Assembly: GCF_001277215.2 (NCBI RefSeq)
Contig: NZ_CP013940.1
Coordinates: 3,348,001-3,412,000, forward strand
Reading direction: 5' to 3'
From: Cronobacter malonaticus LMG 23826
GTDB taxonomy: Bacteria > Pseudomonadota > Gammaproteobacteria > Enterobacterales > Enterobacteriaceae
DNA length: 64,000 nucleotides
Shown: piece by piece, positions 13,883 through 22,896 of the stretch
How the letters are laid out: each line of letters begins with the position of its first letter
How positions within the stretch are numbered: position 1 is the stretch's first letter
The notes under the pieces: model-generated
What the model saw: the letters and a program-made list of their open reading frames with translations, nothing else
Database searches by the model: none
What the model was told of the DNA's origin: nothing
Program-made: the position numbers and the translations under genes

Positions 13883-14836
13883 ATGCCACTCGATTATTTA
13901 CATACGTTATGCCAGCGTCATAACGCGCTGGTCCTGAATATCGACGACGCCACGGTGCACATCGCCGTGGCGGGTGAGCCAAGTAATGAATTGATGGATG
14001 CGCTACGGTTTTCCACGCACCGGCATATTGATATCGAGTGCTGGAGCGCCGAACGGCTGGAAAAAGAGCGGCAGTTGGCGGCTGAGCCGTTACGTCCGGC
14101 CGCGCAGGATGAAAGTGCTTCTGTGGTGGGGCTGATTGACCAGACGCTGCAACAGGCGCTACAGCGGCGCGCATCCGATATCCACTTTGAACCCGCCGAA
14201 GCGCACTACCAGATAAGATTCCGAATAGATGGCGTTTTGCATCCCTTGCCGCCGCTGCCTGCGGCACTTGCCAGCGCGCTGACGGCGCGTCTCAAAGTGC
14301 TGGGCAATCTTGATATTGCGGAACGCAGGCTTCCGCAGGATGGACAGTTCAGCATCGAACTTGGTGGGCGAACGGTCTCTTTTCGCATCTCTACCCTGCT
14401 CTGCCGCTGCGGCGAGAAAGTGGTTTTACGTCTGTTACAGCAAACGGAGCAGCCGCTGGAAGTGCAGGCCCTGGGGCTATCGCCAGCGCAGCAAACGCTC
14501 TTTTGCCAGGCGTTACAGCGCCCGCAGGGACTGATACTGGTTACCGGCCCCACGGGGAGCGGCAAAACCGTCACGCTGTATACTGCGCTTAGTACGCTGA
14601 ATGAACCGCAGGTAAATATCTGCAGCGTAGAAGATCCGGTCGAGATCCCTGTGACAGGTCTTAACCAGACGCCGGTGCTGCCTAAAGCGGGGCTGACGTT
14701 CCAGGCGGTGCTGCGCGCGCTGCTCAGGCAGGATCCGGACGTTATTATGATTGGTGAGATTCGCGATCTCGAAACTGCGGAAATCGCCGTAAAAGCGGCT
14801 CAGACCGGGCATCTGGTGCTAATTACAACTCTCTAA
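13883..14836 (+). pseudogene. hofB: hofB 5' part (pilus assembly ATPase), interrupted by element
   Basis: This part encodes residues 1-312 of the GspE/PilB-type ATPase that powers pilus polymerisation. It keeps the N2 domain, Walker A (GPTGSGKT), the Asp box and Walker B (DPDVIMIGEIRDLETAEI), but stops in the His box: AQTGHLVL is followed by ITTL and a stop coded by the inserted DNA. Missing are the catalytic His-box STLHTNS and the C-terminal Cys4 zinc motif, so the truncated 317-residue product should be inactive. The missing part lies at 22450-22896 in the same frame; together they give 460 residues (461 in E. coli). Confidence 0.95.
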
Positions 14837-14844
14837 TAACTAAC
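14801..14844. other. attL, left junction of the hofB element
   Basis: Host DNA reads CATCTGGTG to 14818; element DNA begins AATTACAACTCTC at 14821. The dinucleotide CT at 14819-14820 can belong to either side and recurs at 22450-22451, as expected for the 2-base crossover of a serine recombinase. The junction was found by comparing the two hofB parts with the known HofB protein. The element-side half-site (14821-14844) is an imperfect inverted copy of 22426-22449. Confidence 0.8.
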
Positions 14845-14976
14845 TTCGATTTGTATAGATGTTAAGCGACTTCAAGGATATGGCTTAGAGCTTTGCCAGA
14901 CAGTTCCAATTGATTCCTACGCTGGTTTTATTTACAGTGAATCGTGATAAAGCAAGTAGCATTCAGGAGATTACTT

Positions 14977-15198
14977 ATGTCCTCTTATGATTCGCGGGTT
15001 CAGTTGACGTCAAAAAGCAGCGTTATCTATAAGTTTCTGGTTCATGCGGCTACCCCACAGGGGGCAAGAGTTAAAGTCCAAAACCATCTGAGAAAGCTGG
15101 GAGATTTTGATTTCAGTGAAATTTGCATTTCGTCTATGGAGGTGAGGGGTGATGTCTTGCTTCTAAACCCTGACGGTACAAAGTGCCTGATTCTTTAA
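14977..15198 (+). CDS. Small unknown protein near the left end of the element
   Basis: The 73-residue product begins MSSYDSRVQLTSKSS; AGGAGA (14965-14970) six bases upstream decides this start over an in-frame ATG at 14944. It is the only element gene reading toward the right. No membrane segment, signal or metal-binding cysteine pattern is visible (C48 and C70 are isolated), and I do not recognise a family. Its place beside attL would suit a recombination directionality factor or a regulator, but nothing in the sequence proves that. Confidence 0.6.
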   Translation: MSSYDSRVQLTSKSSVIYKFLVHAATPQGARVKVQNHLRKLGDFDFSEICISSMEVRGDVLLLNPDGTKCLIL

Positions 15199-15209
15199 GG
15201 TACAAGTCA

Positions 15210-15431
15210 TCATCGAAATGTATGTTTTTCAAGCAGATGAACAATAACGATGTGATGTCGCTGCTTATCACTACACCCTGCAATACCGTATCGCTTAACC
15301 AGTTCATAGCCGACCTTATCCAGCCTTTTAAGTAGCTGCTCAGGTAGCGATAAGACCAAATTAAAGGCTACGGGGGTAAGCACCTCTTGCTTATCATTTT
15401 GTTTCAGTGGGTTGAATGCGTAAAGGTTCAT
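15210..15431 (-). CDS. Small unknown protein, last gene of the left operon
   Basis: The 73-residue product begins MNLYAFNPLKQNDKQEVLTP and has a central LSLPEQLLKRLDKVGYELVK segment that may form an amphipathic helix and resembles short DNA-binding or antitoxin-like proteins only in general character. Its ATG overlaps the stop of the preceding gene by four bases (ATGA), which supports real translation and coupling. Family not recognised. Confidence 0.55.
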   Translation of the reverse strand: MNLYAFNPLKQNDKQEVLTPVAFNLVLSLPEQLLKRLDKVGYELVKRYGIAGCSDKQRHHIVIVHLLEKHTFR

Positions 15432-15613
15432 TGTTCAGTCTCCACGTTTCGTAGCATCTCACCAATTGCCAGTATTAGACGCTGTTCTTCTGACTTAATT
15501 CCGTCACCGATTCGGTTTGCCAGCCTTTCCAGTTTCCCCAAATAAAAAGAGTGAAGGTTCAGAGCTATGTTTGCTCGTACTTGCTGACCATAAGCATTGA
15601 AGAGTTGATTCAT
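15428..15613 (-). CDS. Small unknown helical protein
   Basis: The 61-residue product begins MNQLFNAYGQQVRANIALNL and looks wholly helical and charged. It starts directly after the stop of the previous gene (TAAATG) and ends in a four-base overlap with the next, so it is part of a tightly coupled four-gene operon. No family recognised; no signal or membrane segment. Confidence 0.55.
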   Translation of the reverse strand: MNQLFNAYGQQVRANIALNLHSFYLGKLERLANRIGDGIKSEEQRLILAIGEMLRNVETEQ

Positions 15614-15874
15614 TTACAGCCCTCCTGTCATTTTCCTGATTGCATCTTTGAGAGCTGTATCTCTTTGCTGTTCAATTGTTGGCTTTGGCTTAACCTTGTA
15701 AGTGGTGACTGCTTTCGATGGTTTCACAGTTGGTTTAGGCTTACTGCCTGAAGAGAGTGATTTATAAGTTGCTTCACTGATTTCTTTTTGACCGTTGAAA
15801 TATTTGAATTCCATTGAGTCAGTATTAGGGTTATAGCTGCCACGTTTGGACAGCCCTTTCATTGGAGTAATCAT
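15614..15874 (-). CDS. Small unknown basic protein
   Basis: The 86-residue product begins MITPMKGLSKRGSYNPNTDS. It has a Lys/Pro/Ser-rich middle (KPKPTVKPSKAVTTYKVKPK) suggesting a flexible linker or nucleic-acid contact, and a short helical end. Its start overlaps the upstream stop by one base (TAATG). No family recognised. Position in a coupled operon is the main evidence that it is a gene. Confidence 0.55.
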   Translation of the reverse strand: MITPMKGLSKRGSYNPNTDSMEFKYFNGQKEISEATYKSLSSGSKPKPTVKPSKAVTTYKVKPKPTIEQQRDTALKDAIRKMTGGL

Positions 15875-16449
15875 TATTCTGTTACCTCTTCAGAGTCAGT
15901 TACAATCACGTTTAAATAGCTTTCAAATAATTTAATCGAATCCAGAGCTTTACGGGCTTCGATTACGATTTTATTTCGCTGATGGACAGCTTCAGAGGCT
16001 TTTACCTTCAGACGTTCAATCATCTTATCAATAGTTGACTCAGCCTCTGCTGTAGCCTTATCAGTTATGTCCTGAAGAGGATTATCTTTAGCGTTCTTTG
16101 GCACACGAATGAAACTAATTACACCGATACCCATGCGGTGAACCATGTAGCCAGAATAAGCCATTGACTCAATAATCTGCTGTTGGTTCGTTGGGTAAAC
16201 CTGCTTCACAATGAAACCGTGACGTTCTGAAGGATTAGCCAGATATTCGGCAGTTTTCCGGTTAATCAATTGCTGGCGTGATTCTACTGCATCCCGATAT
16301 TCAGATTCTGCTTTAGACATCTTGTCAGTGGCCTGTTGAACCTTCGGGAAATAGAGCTTCTCAATATGCTGACGTTGTTCAAAAGGTAGCAGATGGTTAA
16401 TACTTGCGATGGGTTGGTTAATTGATACGGCTTTATTCAAGGTTGTCAT
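15874..16449 (-). CDS. Unknown 191-residue helical protein, first gene of the left operon
   Basis: The start MTTLNKAVSINQPIASINHL behind a GAGAG site is preferred over an in-frame ATG 30 bases upstream. Two long charged helical stretches (about 35-75 and 135-180) suggest coiled coils, separated by a compact segment containing HGFIVKQVYP and MGIGVISFIRVP. No catalytic motif, signal peptide or membrane helix is visible. It heads the run of four coupled small genes. I do not recognise a family; a structural or DNA-organising role would be a guess. Confidence 0.6.
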   Translation of the reverse strand: MTTLNKAVSINQPIASINHLLPFEQRQHIEKLYFPKVQQATDKMSKAESEYRDAVESRQQLINRKTAEYLANPSERHGFIVKQVYPTNQQQIIESMAYSGYMVHRMGIGVISFIRVPKNAKDNPLQDITDKATAEAESTIDKMIERLKVKASEAVHQRNKIVIEARKALDSIKLFESYLNVIVTDSEEVTE

Positions 16450-16483
16450 TAGTAACTCTCTCGTGAAATTCAGATACAAAAAT

Positions 16484-16523
16484 ACACCACACAGGCCGTC
16501 TTTTTACGTAACCCGTGTAGTGT
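16484..16523. repeat. Inverted repeat before the left operon
   Basis: ACACCACAC (16484-16492) and GTGTAGTGT (16515-16523) are complementary except for one pair and lie 35-75 bases upstream of the 191-residue gene. They could form an operator or a leader hairpin. Function not known. Confidence 0.4.
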
Positions 16524-16631
16524 AATCTGGAATATGTAAGGGGTTGGCTAACCTGTCTCCGAGGAAGGATGCCACAGGAAAGCCATTAATCTGTCAGAAA
16601 ATCAATTCAATACACAAATGTTAACGTATTG

Positions 16632-16823
16632 TTAAATTCCGTCAAGAGGTTTCAGCTTCTGACAGATAGCCTTAATGATTTCGTACCGTCTGGTTTTAGT
16701 CATCATACGAGGCGGGGTGTAATTGGAGGAAGATGTAATTCCTGTTAATTCGGAAAGTCTCTTGAATTGCATATAGAAAAGATGTGTCTTCTCAGCTACA
16801 ACGATAAAGTATTTCTTTTTCAT
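16632..16823 (-). CDS. Small basic unknown protein
   Basis: The 63-residue product begins MKKKYFIVVAEKTHLFYMQF and is rich in Lys and Arg (MMTKTRRYEIIKAICQKLKP). No clear helix-turn-helix or zinc motif can be assigned. No good ribosome site is seen, and the gene stands alone between two inverted repeats, so it is the least certain gene call in the element. It might be a small DNA-binding regulator. Confidence 0.4.
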   Translation of the reverse strand: MKKKYFIVVAEKTHLFYMQFKRLSELTGITSSSNYTPPRMMTKTRRYEIIKAICQKLKPLDGI

Positions 16824-16847
16824 TCATATTAATAGTCCCTAAACAGA

Positions 16848-16888
16848 AAAGGTCACTCCCCATGATAAAACCTGAGAAAGTGACCTTT
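16848..16888. repeat. Perfect 10-bp inverted repeat upstream of the small basic protein
   Basis: AAAGGTCACT (16848-16857) and AGTGACCTTT (16879-16888) pair perfectly around 21 bases. It lies 25-65 bases upstream of the 63-residue gene and could be an operator or leader hairpin. No T-run follows on either strand. Confidence 0.5.
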
Positions 16889-17635
16889 CAATGATTCTCA
16901 CCTATCTAAGACCCTGTTGACCAATTTTGATAAATGAGTTTACTGTATTATTATCATACGAATATGTGTTTTTGTCCAGTGGTTTATTGTTATTACAGAC
17001 TTTGATGAGTAATTATTATGGGCGGGGTGAATGGGATGGCACAAATACATATTTAGCACTTTTTGTTAATAAAAATTCATGAAAATATGATATAAATAGA
17101 GTTATCTGTTAAGTTAACTGATTGAGTCTTTTTGTTTCACTTCAATAAACATGGCTAACGCAAAAGCCATGAAATTTGATTGATTCACTTACAAAGGATA
17201 TCAATAAAACTTAACAGAAAGTTAAATTCCCGAATCACCAATCATATAAATCTCACCTAGCTTCGCTTATCGGTGATTCTGGTTTCCACCTTGTAGCCTT
17301 GACAGTAAATCATATCGGGATCCGTGAAAGAGGCTTTGAAGCTGGTGGATGAATTTTCACAAATATTATCTTTCTAAAAAATTTCCAGACCTATTTTTAT
17401 TTCAGCTTCACCGGAAACTTTCAGCATATCTAGAGCACCTTTGAAGATTTTGGATAGTCTGAATCTCTCTACTTAGTAGCGCCCTTTTCAAAGGTTCCGT
17501 ACCAATGGCAAAAAATGAACATATCTGAGCCTGTACAGCGTTCTAAGCGATTGTTTAATGATGGCAACCTAGCCCACAGGATAATATAAAGACTGCTTAG
17601 AATGCGTTACAGGGATCCTGATAAATGTCAGACAT
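16889..17635. other. Structured non-coding stretch of the element
   Basis: About 750 AT-rich bases without a supported gene. Three dyads are visible: CATGGCT/AGCCATG (17150-17171, 8-base loop), GAATCACC/GGTGATTC (17232-17279) and TTCTAAGC/GCTTAGAA (17541-17602). The stretch may hold an origin, a transfer or packaging site, a small RNA or promoters. No direct-repeat iteron series, tRNA or riboswitch was recognised. Confidence 0.45.
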
Positions 17636-17660
17636 AAAAAAGCCCCGCACAAAGCAGGGC
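17636..17660 (-). terminator. Terminator after the small serine recombinase
   Basis: On the minus strand GCCCTGC and GCGGGGC (one G-U pair) form a 7-bp stem with a 5-base loop followed by six U. It starts 20 bases after the recombinase stop codon. Confidence 0.8.
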
Positions 17661-17680
17661 GTAAATCTTCAACAATTCGA

Positions 17681-18304
17681 TTAAACCACCTCTTTGAGGC
17701 TCTTACTGACCTTTGCCACCGTTGCCCTTGAACAATTCACCGTTTCCATTACGTCACTGTAAGACATCCCAGCCTGTAACAGCTTGGCTATTCTCTCATT
17801 GCGCTGTGTGTCCTCTGGACGGCCTTTATATTTTCCGTCTGATTTGGCCTTAACAATCCCCTGAGCCTGTCTTCTCTTACGGTCTGTGTAATCCTTTCTG
17901 GCAATAGCGGCGAGCATGTCCAGCATCATCCCGTTTAACGCCTCAAGCATCCTGCTGGTGAACTCATCCCCTGACTGAATAAGCTGGTGGCTTGTTGGCA
18001 GGTCTAAGGCAACGACTCTCACACCTTTCTCATTAATCAGTGACCGTAACTTGTTCCAGTCTTCACCGCTCAAACGTGACAGGCGGTCTACCTGCTCCAC
18101 TAAGAGAACATCTCCCTTCTGCGCAATATCCAGCAATCTGAACAACTCAGGACGCTTTAGAGATGCACCAGATTCATTCTCTGTGAAGTAGCTTGAAATA
18201 GTCATACCGTTGGCTGTAGCGAACTCACCCAACTGACCTTTGGCGCGTGTTGCGTCTTGCTGAGTGGTGGAAGCTCTGAGGTAAGCGTAGACACGTGAAG
18301 TCAT
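17681..18304 (-). CDS. Small serine recombinase (resolvase/invertase family)
   Basis: The 207 residues show the N-terminal catalytic domain with nucleophile S12 in AYLRAST, the EQVDRLSRLSGEDW region near 70-85 and the long E-helix region, then a C-terminal helix-turn-helix (AGMSYSDVMETVNCSRATVA, about 174-193). This is the size and layout of Tn3-type resolvases and Hin/Gin invertases, distinct from the large recombinase of the same element. It might resolve multimers or invert or regulate DNA; no hix-like inverted pair was found. A repeat array lies directly upstream. No good ribosome site precedes the ATG. Confidence 0.88.
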   Translation of the reverse strand: MTSRVYAYLRASTTQQDATRAKGQLGEFATANGMTISSYFTENESGASLKRPELFRLLDIAQKGDVLLVEQVDRLSRLSGEDWNKLRSLINEKGVRVVALDLPTSHQLIQSGDEFTSRMLEALNGMMLDMLAAIARKDYTDRKRRQAQGIVKAKSDGKYKGRPEDTQRNERIAKLLQAGMSYSDVMETVNCSRATVAKVSKSLKEVV

Positions 18305-18308
18305 GATA

Positions 18309-18398
18309 GTGAACCGTAGCAGTCTGTTTAAGATGGTTCAATTATATCAGTCTGTTTTACGTGGTTCAATAAACCATTTTTGAGGTGAACTGGTTCAC
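18309..18398. repeat. Repeat array upstream of the small recombinase (possible res/operator)
   Basis: Two direct copies of a 25-base unit with matching CAGTCTGTTT and TGGTTCAAT parts start at 18320 and 18348 (28-base period). A perfect dyad GTGAAC-TG-GTTCAC follows at 18385-18398, and a further GTGAACC lies at 18310-18316. All share the GGTTCA word. Several spaced recombinase-length sites right before a resolvase gene are typical of res sites, which double as its operator. Binding is inferred. Confidence 0.55.
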
Positions 18399-18638
18399 TA
18401 AATCGGTGCTTGTTGAGGTATACCTTAACCAGACCGGAAGCAGCGTGTAAATTACCAGTAAGTTCACTGTAATCACCACAAAACAGAAAAGTGGCCTGAG
18501 GTCAGGGCTGGCAAGCCATCGAAGAAGAAAACATGGAGTGTAAGAAAACTGTTAATCACTGTTAAAACAATGAATAACCATTCAAATTGGTCAGTATTTG
18601 CGGGTTCTTAATGTATAACTATGCATTTTTTTGAAATG

Positions 18639-18666
18639 AAAAAGAAAGGCCGTCTAGTCTGACGGC
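18639..18666 (-). terminator. Terminator after the membrane/coiled-coil gene
   Basis: GCCGTC (18649-18654) and GACGGC (18661-18666) form a 6-bp stem, followed on the minus strand by CTTTCTTTTT. It lies eight bases after the stop codon and would close the AbiTii cassette transcript. Confidence 0.7.
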
Positions 18667-18674
18667 AACCTTAA

Positions 18675-19718
18675 TCATCCGGCTGTTGTCCCTGAAATTA
18701 CAGCCCTGTTTTTGATATTGTTAATTATGTTCTTGTTTTTCTTTGAGTTATTCATATAGACATTTTTGTTGATAATTTTCAGTGTCGATGAAAGCTCATT
18801 GATAAGCAAATCCATTTCTTTGTGTCTGCTGATATTCGTGGTAACGCCATAATCAAGTTCTTGGTTATACGACTCACGGATGTCCTTAATAAGGGATAAG
18901 GCATTTGATATGGTTTCCATGAGGATTTTATTTCGCTCTTCCTGATACTCTACGACATAGCCAGCAATCTCTAACTCTTCATCACTGAATAGGCTGGAAA
19001 GCTCGTCTTTGATACTGTTCAGTGAGCGGCTGTCTGAAACATTATTGAAGCCATTAACTAATTTGATAACTTTGAACACCCTGTTTCTCCAGAAATCAGT
19101 CTCTTTCTGGACTTTCTCTCCTTGCTCCTCTAGTTTTTTTATTGAGGATTCAATCTCATATCTTCTGTTTTCCCCCTGCTCTTCTAGTTTTTTTATTGCG
19201 GATTCAATTTCGTATTTTCTTTTTTCCAATTGCTTGAGGTTTTCTTCTAGTGCATTTGTGTCGAGAACTGCTCTTTTTTGTTTTTCTTGCTCCTGAACAA
19301 CCTTTGTATGCTCTTTTTCCTCAGCAAGTTCTTGAGCTTTATTTGCTTCAACTTTCTTTCCAGCTATATCAATATCATCATCATATTTATCAATTATTTT
19401 TTGTTTCAGGTCTGCTCGTTGATTTTTTTCTGCACGCTTATGGGCTGCTGAAAGCCATTGCTGAAGATAGGGGGAAACGGCAGCCAGAGCAGCACCAACA
19501 ATCACTGGTAATACGATGTAGTGAACAAAAAACCACTCCTGAGAGGTTATTTCCGAAATCCTTACTTCAACCTCTCTTTTGCTCATAAATAACTTAGCAA
19601 TATTTTGCCAATTGAAACCAAGCCATGAGAAAAAAACATAACCCCACAAAGGGCTTGAAATCCTGTCTTTAAAGGCTTGTTTGACCTGCTCAACTGGTTC
19701 TTTAGTAACTTCGCCCAT
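18675..19718 (-). CDS. Two-helix membrane protein with long coiled coil, AbiTii partner candidate
   Basis: The 347-residue product has a first hydrophobic segment with RISSPLWGYVFFSWLGFNWQ (19-38) and a second at about 61-89 (HYIVLPVIVGAALAAVSPYL), then a charged coiled coil from about 95 to 210 and a helical C-terminal part ending in a basic Asn/Lys tail. An 18-residue unit (YEIESAIKKLEEQGE) is repeated in tandem. The N-terminal pattern occurs in many small membrane proteins of unknown role. It follows the AbiTii gene by 83 bases on the same strand with its own GAGGG ribosome site and ends at a terminator, suggesting a two-gene cassette. Function unknown; a membrane effector or sensor in phage defence is an inference. 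Confidence 0.7.
   Translation of the reverse strand: MGEVTKEPVEQVKQAFKDRISSPLWGYVFFSWLGFNWQNIAKLFMSKREVEVRISEITSQEWFFVHYIVLPVIVGAALAAVSPYLQQWLSAAHKRAEKNQRADLKQKIIDKYDDDIDIAGKKVEANKAQELAEEKEHTKVVQEQEKQKRAVLDTNALEENLKQLEKRKYEIESAIKKLEEQGENRRYEIESSIKKLEEQGEKVQKETDFWRNRVFKVIKLVNGFNNVSDSRSLNSIKDELSSLFSDEELEIAGYVVEYQEERNKILMETISNALSLIKDIRESYNQELDYGVTTNISRHKEMDLLINELSSTLKIINKNVYMNNSKKNKNIINNIKNRAVISGTTAG
19107..19214 (-). repeat. 54-bp tandem duplication inside the coiled coil
   Basis: Two adjacent 54-base copies encode the repeated 18-residue units starting at Y169 and Y187. They keep the frame and differ at few positions, so coiled-coil length could vary by slippage or recombination. Confidence 0.8.
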
Positions 19719-19801
19719 AGCACCCTCGCTTTAAAAAATTGCCATATATAAATAGACCTACCTTAAATATACAAGTCCATATTCCATCATTATTTATGTA
19801 T

Positions 19802-20698
19802 TCAAACAGGTATGTTAAAGAAATGGCATATTGCATTTGTGAGTATTGCCGGAGCCGCAGCACCAGCTATGTTTAAGCCACCAGCATAAGCCTTGCCAAT
19901 CATATTACCCACCCAACCACCAATTCCAGCGCCTAAATTTTCAGATGATTCGGGAACAGGTGAATCAGATATAATTCCCTCAAGCTCCCTGATGTCGGAC
20001 TTTTCAACACCCAACTTTTCGAGATAATCAGCCAGAGATGAGAAATCACCTGATGTTATATTATTCTGCTGGTTTACGTCACCCTCAACTTGATGAGCAA
20101 ACACACCATTATTAGTAAACACATCGTTGAAAATATATTTAACCGTCACAGGAGCCACCTCTTTTTCTTGCTGATTGAAACGCAGGTCTTCACCAAATAT
20201 GTTTTGCTTCTCTAACTCCAGAGACCAATCAAGAATTTTATTTCTCACAGTGGTGACAATATGCTCTAGTTTATTAGAGCTAAAAAACCAGCATAATTCC
20301 ATGCCACCTTTCCCCGCCCCTAATAGTATTTCAACCTGACGCGGATTAAGAGGCAGCCTAATCATCTCACCTTTATTATCCCGATTATCCATTGATGATA
20401 TTGATTCATAAAGAGTATAGGTAGTTATCTTGTCTATCATCTCTGCTGTCATACCGTTTAAATCGAGAGGCAAATATCTACCCTGGACATAATTAAACCC
20501 CTTAACAATTCCATGCCCTGTACGATAATCAGGAACATCAGATTTATTGGGATAGCCATTGATTTCATGCTCAACCCACGTAATTAAATCAAGCAGATTC
20601 AATTTTACAGCGATAGATTTCGCCTTAAGCAATACAGCTAGAATTTCTGTTTTTGGGTCTTCAGCTAGTGCTTGCAATTGTAAAACGGGGGAGTTCAT
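19802..20698 (-). CDS. AbiTii-domain protein, candidate abortive-infection defence
   Basis: The 298-residue product begins MNSPVLQLQALAEDPKTEIL; residues about 4-185 follow the AbiTii pattern, with the family hallmark LITWVEHEINGYP (38-50) and a following VPDYRTGHGIVKGF. A linker with VEGDVNQQNNITSGDFSSLA leads to a Gly/Ala-rich hydrophobic C-terminus (255-298, LGAGIGGWVGNMIGKAYAGG) that could enter a membrane. AbiTii proteins were named for phage resistance in Lactococcus; the mechanism is not established. The GAGAGG site supports this start. It lies 70 bases downstream of the integrase and upstream of the membrane/coiled-coil gene. Family assignment is from memory of the motif. Confidence 0.72.
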   Translation of the reverse strand: MNSPVLQLQALAEDPKTEILAVLLKAKSIAVKLNLLDLITWVEHEINGYPNKSDVPDYRTGHGIVKGFNYVQGRYLPLDLNGMTAEMIDKITTYTLYESISSMDNRDNKGEMIRLPLNPRQVEILLGAGKGGMELCWFFSSNKLEHIVTTVRNKILDWSLELEKQNIFGEDLRFNQQEKEVAPVTVKYIFNDVFTNNGVFAHQVEGDVNQQNNITSGDFSSLADYLEKLGVEKSDIRELEGIISDSPVPESSENLGAGIGGWVGNMIGKAYAGGLNIAGAAAPAILTNAICHFFNIPV

Positions 20699-20768
20699 AG
20701 CCAGCCTCTCGCTTAGTCAGTTACTGACATTTTAGCCGTTACAAACCTGAATGTAAGCAAACTTTTCA

Positions 20769-22391
20769 CTATGGCTGATTAGATTGCTCTTCCATCTCTT
20801 TCACCCAATTTGGAGCCTCTTCTAAGGCTATGTAACGGGGCTTAGTCGTGAACCCTTCAAAGTCGAATTCATCACCGTCAATCAGCGGCAAAACTTCCAG
20901 CCATTGAGCACCGTCTACCACCCTATCCAATGGGAAATTCAGCAGCTTTAAGCCGTTATGTAAGAAGACATCACATTTCTTTCCAGCCGTGTTAAGTCGG
21001 ATTTCTTTCACTATCCGCTTAATGATAATTTGAGCCTCTATACGGTCTTTCTTCACGGTTAAATCCAGATGGCTGATTGTCTCAAGCTGGGTTGATTGCT
21101 CTCGCTGGTGAACATCAGAAATAGCCTTTTCAGCGTCCTTAATTTGACTATTCAGGGCTTTCAAATCCTTAGCCATTGATTCGGTATCATCTGCCAGCAT
21201 CGCCAGCTTAATGAGCCTCTCACGCTGTTTCTGAAGCTGTTCTAACTCACTCTGAAGAGAACCAATAGCAGACCCGTTATCACGATTGAGGGAAAGACGG
21301 TTAGTGTTATACAGAAGCCCCTGAACAAGGGCTTTATCAGCCAATCGACGGTTGATACTTTTGGCATGACATCGCCCCTCATATCTCATTGAGCATCTAT
21401 AGACCCCATGCCATTTTTCAGTTGCACAGTTAACAATGGTCACAAAGCCACATTCAGCACAACGCATTACACCTTTGAAGAGGTTAGTAAGTAAGGGCTT
21501 TTCTGATGATGGTCTACGGCCTGCGCCCTGTTTTAACTGCTGTACAGCATAGAAATGTTCTTCACTAATGACGGCAGGGTAATAATTGGGTATCTCCTTT
21601 ACCCCTTTCGTAACTGTACAATTAGACGGCACTTTGAAACCAATCACAGAGCGGTTATCCAAGAGTGCTTTAACAGTAGTGTGAGACCATGCACCTTTAA
21701 CCGGGTTGCGCTGGTTCAGAGTATAGAAGCCCTCTTCATTCATCTGTCTGGCGATTCGTACAAAAGGCAAGCCCTCTAAACGTAGCTGAAAGACACGCTG
21801 AACCGCTTTCACATTATCGGGTATTAGCTCAAAGTGAGACATATCATCAGACACTCTGAGCCACGCCACACAGCGCCGTGACATTATCTTACCCTTAGCC
21901 GCTTCTTCTCGTTTTGCATCCCATGCAGACCTTAACCGCTTTGATTTCGTAGCGGATTCTTCATTAGCTCGTTGCATGATAAGTACAGCTTTAATCAAGC
22001 TGAGAGGGTCATTAAGACTTTCCTTCTTGTACCATGAGTTATCAGCCAATGTGACCACATCAACACCAGCTAATAAAATCTTTCGCAGACGCTCTCTTGC
22101 AGTGTCAATGTCTTGACGGCTTACCCTATCCAGTGATTCAACTAACAACACTGAACCTGCCTCAATAACCCCTGATTCAACAGCGGCTAAGAATTCACCA
22201 AATGCACCTGATTTAGCGTTAGCACCAGAGTAACCACTTATGCCGAGGTCTTGGAACCTGAGCGATTCATCCAAATGATAGTCTGGATTATTCTTGAGCC
22301 ATTCATTTATGTACTTGTTCTGGCGTTTGGTTGAGTCTCCAGATGCCTGAATTCTTGAGGAAAATCGAATGTATGAGATTGCTTTTGGCAT
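20769..22391 (-). CDS. Large serine recombinase (integrase) of the hofB element
   Basis: The 540 residues show the full large-serine-recombinase layout: catalytic domain 1-150 with nucleophile S11 in YIRFSS and the LVESLDRVSRQDIDTAR region; recombinase domain about 165-285 (AWLRVSDDMSHFELIPDNVK, ALLDNRSVIGF); zinc ribbon about 300-345 with MRCAECGF and YRCSMRYEGRCHAK; and a coiled-coil arm near 375-430 (SELEQLQKQRERLIKLAMLA). Such enzymes integrate at attB with a 2-base crossover, which fits the CT at both ends. The gene lies only 58 bases from attR and reads away from it. Serine integrases are unusual in Enterobacteriaceae. Confidence 0.95.
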   Translation of the reverse strand: MPKAISYIRFSSRIQASGDSTKRQNKYINEWLKNNPDYHLDESLRFQDLGISGYSGANAKSGAFGEFLAAVESGVIEAGSVLLVESLDRVSRQDIDTARERLRKILLAGVDVVTLADNSWYKKESLNDPLSLIKAVLIMQRANEESATKSKRLRSAWDAKREEAAKGKIMSRRCVAWLRVSDDMSHFELIPDNVKAVQRVFQLRLEGLPFVRIARQMNEEGFYTLNQRNPVKGAWSHTTVKALLDNRSVIGFKVPSNCTVTKGVKEIPNYYPAVISEEHFYAVQQLKQGAGRRPSSEKPLLTNLFKGVMRCAECGFVTIVNCATEKWHGVYRCSMRYEGRCHAKSINRRLADKALVQGLLYNTNRLSLNRDNGSAIGSLQSELEQLQKQRERLIKLAMLADDTESMAKDLKALNSQIKDAEKAISDVHQREQSTQLETISHLDLTVKKDRIEAQIIIKRIVKEIRLNTAGKKCDVFLHNGLKLLNFPLDRVVDGAQWLEVLPLIDGDEFDFEGFTTKPRYIALEEAPNWVKEMEEQSNQP

Positions 22392-22425
22392 GAGCTAGTA
22401 AGTTACCATGATAGACTTAACAGGA

Positions 22426-22470
22426 GTTTATCATAAGAGATTCGTAGTCCTCTCAACGCTTCACACTAAT
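22426..22470. other. attR, right junction of the hofB element
   Basis: Element DNA ends GATTCGTAGTC at 22449; CT (22450-22451) is the shared crossover dinucleotide and host DNA continues CTCAACGCTTCACAC. Joining 14818 to 22450 gives CATCTGGTG-CTCTCAACG, coding HLVLSTL, exactly the conserved GspE sequence. Confidence 0.8.
22430..22456 (-). promoter_or_regulatory. Possible integrase promoter spanning attR
   Basis: A -10-like TATGAT (22430-22435, minus strand) lies upstream of the integrase start; the nearest -35-like TTGAGA (22451-22456) is host-derived and only 15 bases away. In the excised circle the same -10 would instead have TTGTAA at 18 bases from the other element end. Motif-level evidence only. 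Confidence 0.3.
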
Positions 22471-22896
22471 TCCACAACCGAAACCCTGGTGCGCCTCGAA
22501 CAGATGGGGTTACCGCGCTGGATGCTGGCCTCTGCGCTGGAGCTGGTTGTTGCACAGCGGCTGGTCAGGAAGCTCTGCCCTTACTGCCGGGTCTTTTCAC
22601 AGGAGCCGGTGACGCTCCCGGCCTCGCTCTGGCCACGCCCGATTCACCCCTATAAGGCCTGCGGATGTGAACGATGCTATGGCGGTTATTACGGGCGCAT
22701 CGCGCTTTTCGAGCTGCTCAGCATTAATACGGCGCTGCGCCAGACGATTGCCAGCGGTGCGCCGCCTGAAGAAATCGCTTCACAAGCGCGTGCACAAGGC
22801 ATGACCACACTTTTTGAACATGGGTTACAGGCCATAGAAGCGGGGCTTACTACACCTGAAGAGCTTTACCGCGTATCGGGTGTGCCGCATGGATAA
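22450..22896 (+). pseudogene. hofB: hofB 3' part, separated from its 5' part by the element
   Basis: This stretch encodes the last 148 residues of the pilus ATPase from the His box STLHTNSTTETLVRLEQM through the zinc motif CPYC...CGCERC and the C-terminal domain ending GVPHG. The frame extends left into element DNA to an ATG at 22408 without a good ribosome site, so independent translation is unlikely. The last codons overlap the start of hofC. The frame is intact and in phase with the 5' part, so the gene is interrupted rather than decayed. Confidence 0.93.

What the first reader, a model, noticed from the sequence alone, without database searches (positions are those of the whole stretch)
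14819..22451. A serine-recombinase element splits the pilus ATPase gene hofB exactly and reversibly
Host frames at 13883-14818 and 22450-22896 join without gain or loss of a base: codon 312 is followed directly by CTC TCA ACG, restoring GHLVLSTLHTNS and 460 residues. The junctions share only CT, the crossover size of large serine recombinases, and such an enzyme is encoded next to the right end. Neither host half shows decay. This resembles phage in Listeria comK or skin in sigK, where excision reactivates the gene. That HofB is switched this way is an inference.
Basis: partly seen in the sequence, partly recalled or inferred. Interest (0 to 1): 0.92.

Follow-up and report, generated by a model that had tools for sequence, protein, structure and literature searches.

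The report
Mobile defence element splits pilus motor
A small mobile DNA element has inserted itself cleanly into the gene for a pilus motor in a Cronobacter genome; a near-identical integrase sits at the same spot in a sister secretion-motor gene of another bacterium, so it looks like an element that aims at a shared motor motif rather than a switch built for this one gene.

Summary
A 7,631-bp, AT-rich element (14819-22449) splits hofB of a Cronobacter genome. The halves join in frame to 460 codons, the junctions share only CT, and 6 of 6 other genomes held for the genus have the unbroken site. A full-length large serine recombinase (LSR) lies at the right end. The element ends form an imperfect palindrome centred on CT, as expected of attP (3 of 100,000 shuffles). 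Site-specific LSR insertion is well supported, and exact excision is geometrically possible.

The "hofB switch" is not supported. An element with a 98%-identical LSR sits in Mixta tenebrionis at the same motif, GHLVL-STLHTNS, but in gspE of a type II secretion operon, while hofB in that genome is intact. A 78%-identical LSR sits in yecE of Klebsiella michiganensis, where hofB and gspE are intact. The integrase thus appears to read DNA encoding the conserved motif of the GspE/PilB motor family. The cargo includes AbiTii (a predicted phage-defence protein) and differs between copies. No excision factor or regulation was recognised; excision could not be tested. Undecayed hofB halves also fit a recent insertion.

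Best reading: a rare defence-carrying integrative element that knocks out a motor ATPase.

The parts
13883..14818 (+). hofB 5' part, 312 codons (the frame runs 5 codons further, from the CT core into the element, to a stop at 14834-14836)
   Evidence: best NCBIfam match NF007755 (below its cut-off because only half the protein; NCBI's own name for it is GspE; called hofB here from the ppdD-hofB-hofC order); 6 of 6 congeners intact
22450..22896 (+). hofB 3' part; joins 14818 in frame
14819..22449 (.). integrated element, 7,631 bp, GC 0.409
14819..14820 (.). left copy of the CT crossover dinucleotide (attL)
22450..22451 (.). right copy of the CT crossover dinucleotide (attR)
14821..14845 (.). 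left attP arm; palindromic with the right arm (17 of 25 positions)
22425..22449 (.). right attP arm
20769..22391 (-). large serine recombinase, 540 aa
   Evidence: Pfam PF00239, PF07508, PF13408 above cut-off; PHROG integrase; 98% in Mixta, 78% in K. michiganensis
19802..20698 (-). AbiTii-domain protein, 298 aa: candidate phage-defence cargo
   Evidence: PF18864 E 3.5e-35; PADLOC AbiTii E 2e-39
18675..19718 (-). 347-aa protein of no assigned family; apparent hydrophobic and coiled-coil stretches by eye; its N-terminal part recurs in L048 (with AbiTii) and in L049
   Evidence: (weak matches only to named families)
17681..18304 (-). small serine resolvase, 207 aa
   Evidence: PF00239 and PF02796
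17249..17646 (.). about 400-bp block without an annotated ORF here, 96% identical in K. michiganensis, 91% in L048, 88% over 331 bp in Mixta; role unknown
   Evidence: no Rfam match at E <= 0.1
15874..16479 (-). 201-aa conserved backbone protein, function unknown
14944..15874 (.). backbone module of small ORFs (84 aa on +; 73, 61 and 86 aa on -)
22408..22896 (+). ATG inside the element in frame with the hofB 3' part (162-aa ORF); the same arrangement occurs in the Mixta gspE copy

Best explanation
This is a small integrative element with an AbiTii gene as predicted defence cargo. Its LSR recombined attP with an attB inside hofB, in the DNA encoding the conserved motif GHLVL-STLHTN of the GspE/PilB motor ATPases, crossing over at CT in the Leu codon. 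The insertion ends HofB after 312 codons plus five more to a stop, so the pilus/DNA-uptake motor is presumably lost while the element is resident. The site is likely used because that coding motif is conserved across hosts and paralogous motors, not because hofB is to be regulated. Shown by sequence: the insertion, CT core, empty sites, LSR domains, palindromic attP, and use of the homologous site in a paralogue. Inferred: LSR activity, loss of HofB function, defence function of the cargo, and low-rate or helper-dependent excision.
For: In-frame join and empty sites in 6 of 6 congeners. LSR domains. Same element ends (93-95% nt) with a 98%-identical LSR at the homologous codon of gspE in Mixta, whose neighbours match gspD (its end only), gspF and gspG. 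Mixta hofB intact. attP palindrome 17 of 25 (3 of 100,000 shuffles), the single top score in the element circle; 20 of 25 (0 of 100,000) in the K. michiganensis copy, also centred on CT; 12 of 20 (0.5% of 20,000 shuffles) in Mixta. AbiTii cargo here, two AbiTii in Mixta, a Shedu-family protein in K. michiganensis. Rarity fits a sporadic mobile element: backbone gene in 1 of 392 family genomes, this one; LSR at E <= 1e-90 in 2 of 394 order genomes, this one and a 40%-identical one.
Against: Only two insertions by this near-identical LSR are known, so 'motif-aimed' rests on n = 2. In 45 bp around the core the two occupied attB sites share 31 of 45 bases, and the empty Mixta hofB shares 34 of 45 with the occupied Cronobacter site and 36 of 45 with the occupied Mixta gspE site, so sequence does not explain why gspE was used in Mixta. 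Two centres elsewhere in the window (of 63,948) also score 17 of 25, and 4 of 3,482 CT centres reach the 20-bp score of 13, so the palindrome persuades by its place, not its score alone. The attB sites themselves show no symmetry. Defence activity and integrase activity are untested.
Confidence: 0.8

Rival explanations
1. Regulated reversible switch: the element is excised under competence-inducing conditions and HofB is made, as with the Listeria comK prophage or the skin element.
For: Exact in-frame join; full-length LSR; no decay of either half.
Against: The nearest relative interrupts gspE, not hofB, and a sister LSR uses yecE. hofB is unbroken in 6 of 6 other genus members. In E. coli all 5374 genomes with a match (of 5426) have one place covering at least 80% of hofB, where pieces up to about 1.2 kb apart are joined. 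So there is no sign of a switch kept across a lineage. No excision factor or regulatory signal was recognised.
Confidence: 0.06
2. Selected anti-uptake insertion: the element gains by disabling the DNA-uptake pilus, so that transformation cannot delete it.
For: Elements insert in comK, comYC, comFA and comM (Croucher 2016, PMC4774983, passages). LSR targets are reported as strongly enriched in DNA competence genes (Durrant 2022, PMC10083194, passages). hofB belongs to the pilus operon with ppdD and hofC.
Against: The near-identical LSR sits in gspE, a protein-secretion motor, and left hofB intact in Mixta. A sister uses yecE. I tested nothing about DNA uptake in Cronobacter.
Confidence: 0.12
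3. Dead remnant: the element is stuck, and hofB is simply a pseudogene at the start of decay.
For: No known RDF and no transfer genes recognised in the 10 element ORFs scanned with Pfam and PHROGs.
Against: LSR ORF full-length and 98% identical to the Mixta copy; ends intact; hofB halves undecayed; a separate insertion in Mixta shows recent mobility of the lineage.
Confidence: 0.12

Closest known systems
Listeria A118-type comK prophages (LSR insertion in a competence gene)
   Same: LSR that splits a competence-linked gene; the A118 integrase is the only protein with a solved structure matched by sequence at E <= 0.001 (4kis, E 7e-5, and 6dnw). That A118 itself sits in comK is recalled.
   Different: No phage structural gene was recognised among the 10 element proteins scanned; relatives use gspE or yecE; no excision shown.
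Site-specific LSRs catalogued by Durrant et al. 2022 (PMC10083194)
   Same: LSRs with attB inside a conserved coding sequence, and target enrichment in competence genes (passages).
   Different: Here one LSR type uses the homologous codon of two paralogous motor genes. 'ATPase', 'pilus', 'secretion' and 'T2SSE' have 0 occurrences in the main text; I did not see whether their tables list it (supplements not available).
Vibrio PLE islands and staphylococcal SCC cassettes (start of abstracts in the listing; mechanism otherwise recalled)
   Same: LSR-mobilised islands that can carry anti-phage functions.
   Different: No sequence relationship was tested; target genes recalled as different.
MGE insertions in comM, comYC, comFA, comK (Croucher 2016, PMC4774983)
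   Same: Mobile elements that disrupt DNA-uptake genes (passages).
   Different: 'hofB' and 'pilB' have 0 occurrences in that main text; the Mixta target is a secretion gene.

Membership tests
Large serine integrase element | LSR with Resolvase, Recombinase and zinc-ribbon domains | tested here: met
   all three above Pfam cut-offs
Large serine integrase element | two-base crossover shared by attL and attR | tested here: met
   exactly CT in this window; CT lies within a longer shared CTAT in Mixta and ATCCTG in K. michiganensis
Large serine integrase element | attP arms form an imperfect inverted repeat about the core | tested here: met
   17 of 25 here, 20 of 25 in K. michiganensis
Large serine integrase element | recombinase activity | not testable with these tools
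   needs a plasmid assay
Gene-splitting developmental or regulatory switch (comK prophage, skin) | exact restoration of the host frame on excision | tested here: met
   (geometry only)
Gene-splitting developmental or regulatory switch (comK prophage, skin) | regulated excision with an excision factor | not testable with these tools
   no RDF recognised among the 10 ORFs scanned; no reads held
Gene-splitting developmental or regulatory switch (comK prophage, skin) | element lineage tied to the same gene | tested here: not met
   gspE in Mixta with hofB intact; yecE in K. michiganensis
MGE disabling natural transformation | disrupts a gene of the uptake pilus | tested here: met
   hofB between ppdD and hofC
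MGE disabling natural transformation | host takes up DNA by this pilus and the insertion stops it | not testable with these tools
   no phenotype data
Prophage | phage structural and lysis genes | tested here: not met
   none recognised among 10 ORFs in PHROGs or Pfam; one weak match (terminase small subunit, E 0.009) in the coiled-coil-like 347-aa protein; no similar phage record
Phage satellite or defence island | anti-phage cargo | tested here: inconclusive
   AbiTii by profile only; no packaging or helper link recognised

The most novel reading that the evidence does not exclude
A family of small defence-carrying integrative elements whose LSR reads the DNA of the motif shared by type IV pilus, type II secretion and perhaps retraction motors, so that most hosts with such a machine offer a landing site. 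The lineage changes target by mosaic exchange within the LSR: catalytic and DNA-binding parts differ between the motor-aimed and yecE-aimed enzymes (57% aa in the zinc-domain region) while the presumed coiled-coil stretch stays 96% identical.
Probability: 0.35. Interest if true: 0.6.

Novelty: new member of a known kind. Interest (0 to 1): 0.42.

Why it matters
It shows one integrase type inserted at the homologous codon of two paralogous motor genes in two genera. This suggests that mobile elements can secure landing sites by reading a conserved protein motif at DNA level, with loss of a pilus or secretion motor as the price to the host. The comparison also removes a tempting but unsupported switch story for hofB. 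The hofB/gspE-aimed and yecE-aimed LSR pair offers a natural comparison for how LSRs change target.

Tried and rejected
Regulatory switch: rejected as the main reading because the nearest relative uses gspE while its hofB is intact.

Prophage: rejected, as no structural genes were recognised in the 10 ORFs scanned and no similar phage record was found.

84-aa ORF as excision factor: dropped. It occurs with a different LSR (30% identical) in E. coli HL15 and was not found in the K. michiganensis yecE copy.

E. coli hofB as a further target: the K-12 site reads TT at the core where 13 of 13 motor-gene sites printed read CT, and no E. coli hofB with a match is broken by a large insert.

No RNA family in the element at E <= 0.1. 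LSR in IMG/VR: no relative confirmed. More distant LSRs exist but were not followed: 39-42% identical in 9 plasmid-collection records, 42% in 1 of 60 relatives' genomes as the best match, partial 65% nt matches in 30 of 5426 E. coli genomes.

Family scan: 131 of 198 genomes had a match; the output was cut, and 9 of the 131 had no printed best row. By my reading, 121 of the 122 printed best rows run across the site and only this genome is split. In genomes without a close hofB the best row may be a paralogue, so a split hofB there could have been missed.

Palindrome test with a wrong centre for K. michiganensis (one base off) gave no symmetry (5 of 20); it was redone centred on CT.

Literature: no paper on hofB or gspE as an LSR site was seen in the listings (20 of 828 shown, off-topic; 8 of 8; 25 of 76; 1; 7; none found). 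These were listings only and cover open-licence papers only.
Full report
What is there. The window lies in a Cronobacter genome: the first 8 kb of each of its two smaller contigs find Cronobacter plasmids as the best-covered records shown. In the operon ppdD-hofB-hofC (order as in E. coli K-12), hofB is split. The 5' part is 13883-14818 and the 3' part is 22450-22896; together they give 460 codons in frame. Between them lies an element of 7,631 bp with GC 0.409, against 0.568 for the rest of the window. Only the dinucleotide CT is common to both junctions. In 6 of 6 other genomes held for the genus the site is unbroken.

What the element carries. Reading from the right end: a 540-aa LSR, an AbiTii protein, a 347-aa protein of no assigned family, a 207-aa small resolvase, a conserved 201-aa protein and several small ORFs. 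AbiTii was first named for a Lactococcus abortive-infection protein (PMC3710099, passages). Among the 10 ORFs scanned, apart from the LSR and the resolvase, no transfer, replication or phage structural gene was recognised. The two element ends, read as the circle, form an imperfect palindrome about CT: 17 of 25 positions, reached by 3 of 100,000 shuffles, and the single best score in the circle. In the window itself, where the two ends are apart, two unrelated centres of 63,948 also score 17, so the score alone is not unique; its place exactly at the junction is what tells. The attB sites show no such symmetry.

Relatives. A scan of genome contigs for close LSR relatives found 2 loci. In Mixta tenebrionis (LSR 98%; element 10,242 bp) the ends match at 93-95%, but the host gene is gspE. 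Both halves match TIGR02533 best, GspF and GspG follow above their cut-offs, and a fragment matching the end of GspD precedes. The crossover is at the homologous codon of GHLVL-STLHTNS, with CT inside a shared CTAT. hofB and gspE are paralogues, so these are separate insertions. The Mixta genome also holds an intact hofB, whose core is CT and whose site is at least as similar to the occupied sites (34 and 36 of 45) as they are to each other (31 of 45). In Klebsiella michiganensis (LSR 78%; 11.0 kb) the element splits yecE, with CT inside a shared ATCCTG, and both hofB and gspE are intact. Two IMG/VR contigs carry the backbone gene next to the 5' part of yecE with the same left junction. This Cronobacter genome shows no gspE at E <= 1e-8; its only other match is a pilT-like gene.

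What this says about mechanism. Use of a homologous codon in a paralogue, by a near-identical LSR, is best explained by recognition of the DNA that encodes the conserved motor motif. This rests on two insertions. The LSRs of the motor-aimed and yecE-aimed elements are mosaics: identity is 80% in the catalytic part, 71% in residues 165-300, 57% in the zinc-domain region 301-360, but 96% in 361-495, with nucleotide identity rising from 60-78% to 89-96% over residues 361-480 (borders chosen by me, guided by the Pfam matches, and the coiled coil is presumed). That pattern suggests exchange within the gene and a change of target with the DNA-binding parts; the link to target is inference.

The switch reading. 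Exact restoration on excision is true of any LSR insertion and is no evidence of regulation. LSRs alone are described as unidirectional and able to excise with a directionality factor (Durrant 2022, PMC10083194, passages); none could be identified. The hofB halves are under the same constraint as in congeners (dN/dS 0.021-0.045 against 0.017-0.062; 14 synonymous and 1 non-synonymous private changes), which a recent insertion predicts too. No broader use of such a split is seen. In the family scan 131 of 198 genomes had matches; of the 122 whose best row was printed, 121 run across the site (count by reading the rows, and some best rows may be paralogues). In E. coli all 5374 genomes with a match, of 5426, cover at least 80% of hofB in one place.

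The anti-uptake reading. Elements that disrupt competence genes are well documented (PMC4774983 and PMC11472951, passages), and LSR targets are reported as enriched in such genes (PMC10083194, passages). hofB fits this, gspE and yecE do not, so I hold it as a possible benefit rather than the reason for the site.

Modularity. Parts of the left backbone and the resolvase (27-28% of the element, in 3 pieces, about 92% identical) recur with other integrases: in E. coli HL15 between yciI and tonB with an LSR 30% identical and annotated with an internal stop, and on plasmid pKp5-1 with a tyrosine integrase; the 201-aa slot there holds a relative only 34-35% identical. Cargo differs among copies: AbiTii, two AbiTii, a Shedu-family protein (L048 by tblastn and by eye). 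The element is therefore a modular defence carrier by sequence; its defence activity is untested.

Verdict.

Noticed in passing
19802-20698 and 18675-19718; L048:1-2745: AbiTii next to a protein starting with a shared segment (61% over 148 aa) occurs here and, with two AbiTii genes, in L048; a candidate two-part defence cassette.
   Followed up: partly
17249-17646: A block of about 400 bp is 96% conserved with K. michiganensis although its neighbours differ; in 5 of 5 relatives with an alignment there (L003, L004, L048 end; L017, L049 start) the break lies at element position 2821-2828, beside the resolvase gene. It may be a resolvase site or an origin.
   Followed up: partly
22408-22450; L003:9943-9984: The element brings an ATG in frame with the host 3' part in both the hofB and the gspE insertion, giving an ORF for the C-terminal half; whether it is translated is unknown.
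   Followed up: no
L003:15367-16296; L004:12014-12937: A 307-309-aa protein, similar by eye in the Mixta and K. michiganensis cargo, has no Pfam or PADLOC match in the Mixta copy and is not among the ORFs here.
   Followed up: no
L004:16219-17229 and L048:5585-6589: A Shedu-family gene (profile match in L004) is one 334-aa frame in L048 but two frames in the K. michiganensis element, by eye.
   Followed up: no
L049: On plasmid pKp5-1 parts of the same backbone and the resolvase sit beside a tyrosine integrase, so the backbone has been combined with another integrase class.
   Followed up: partly
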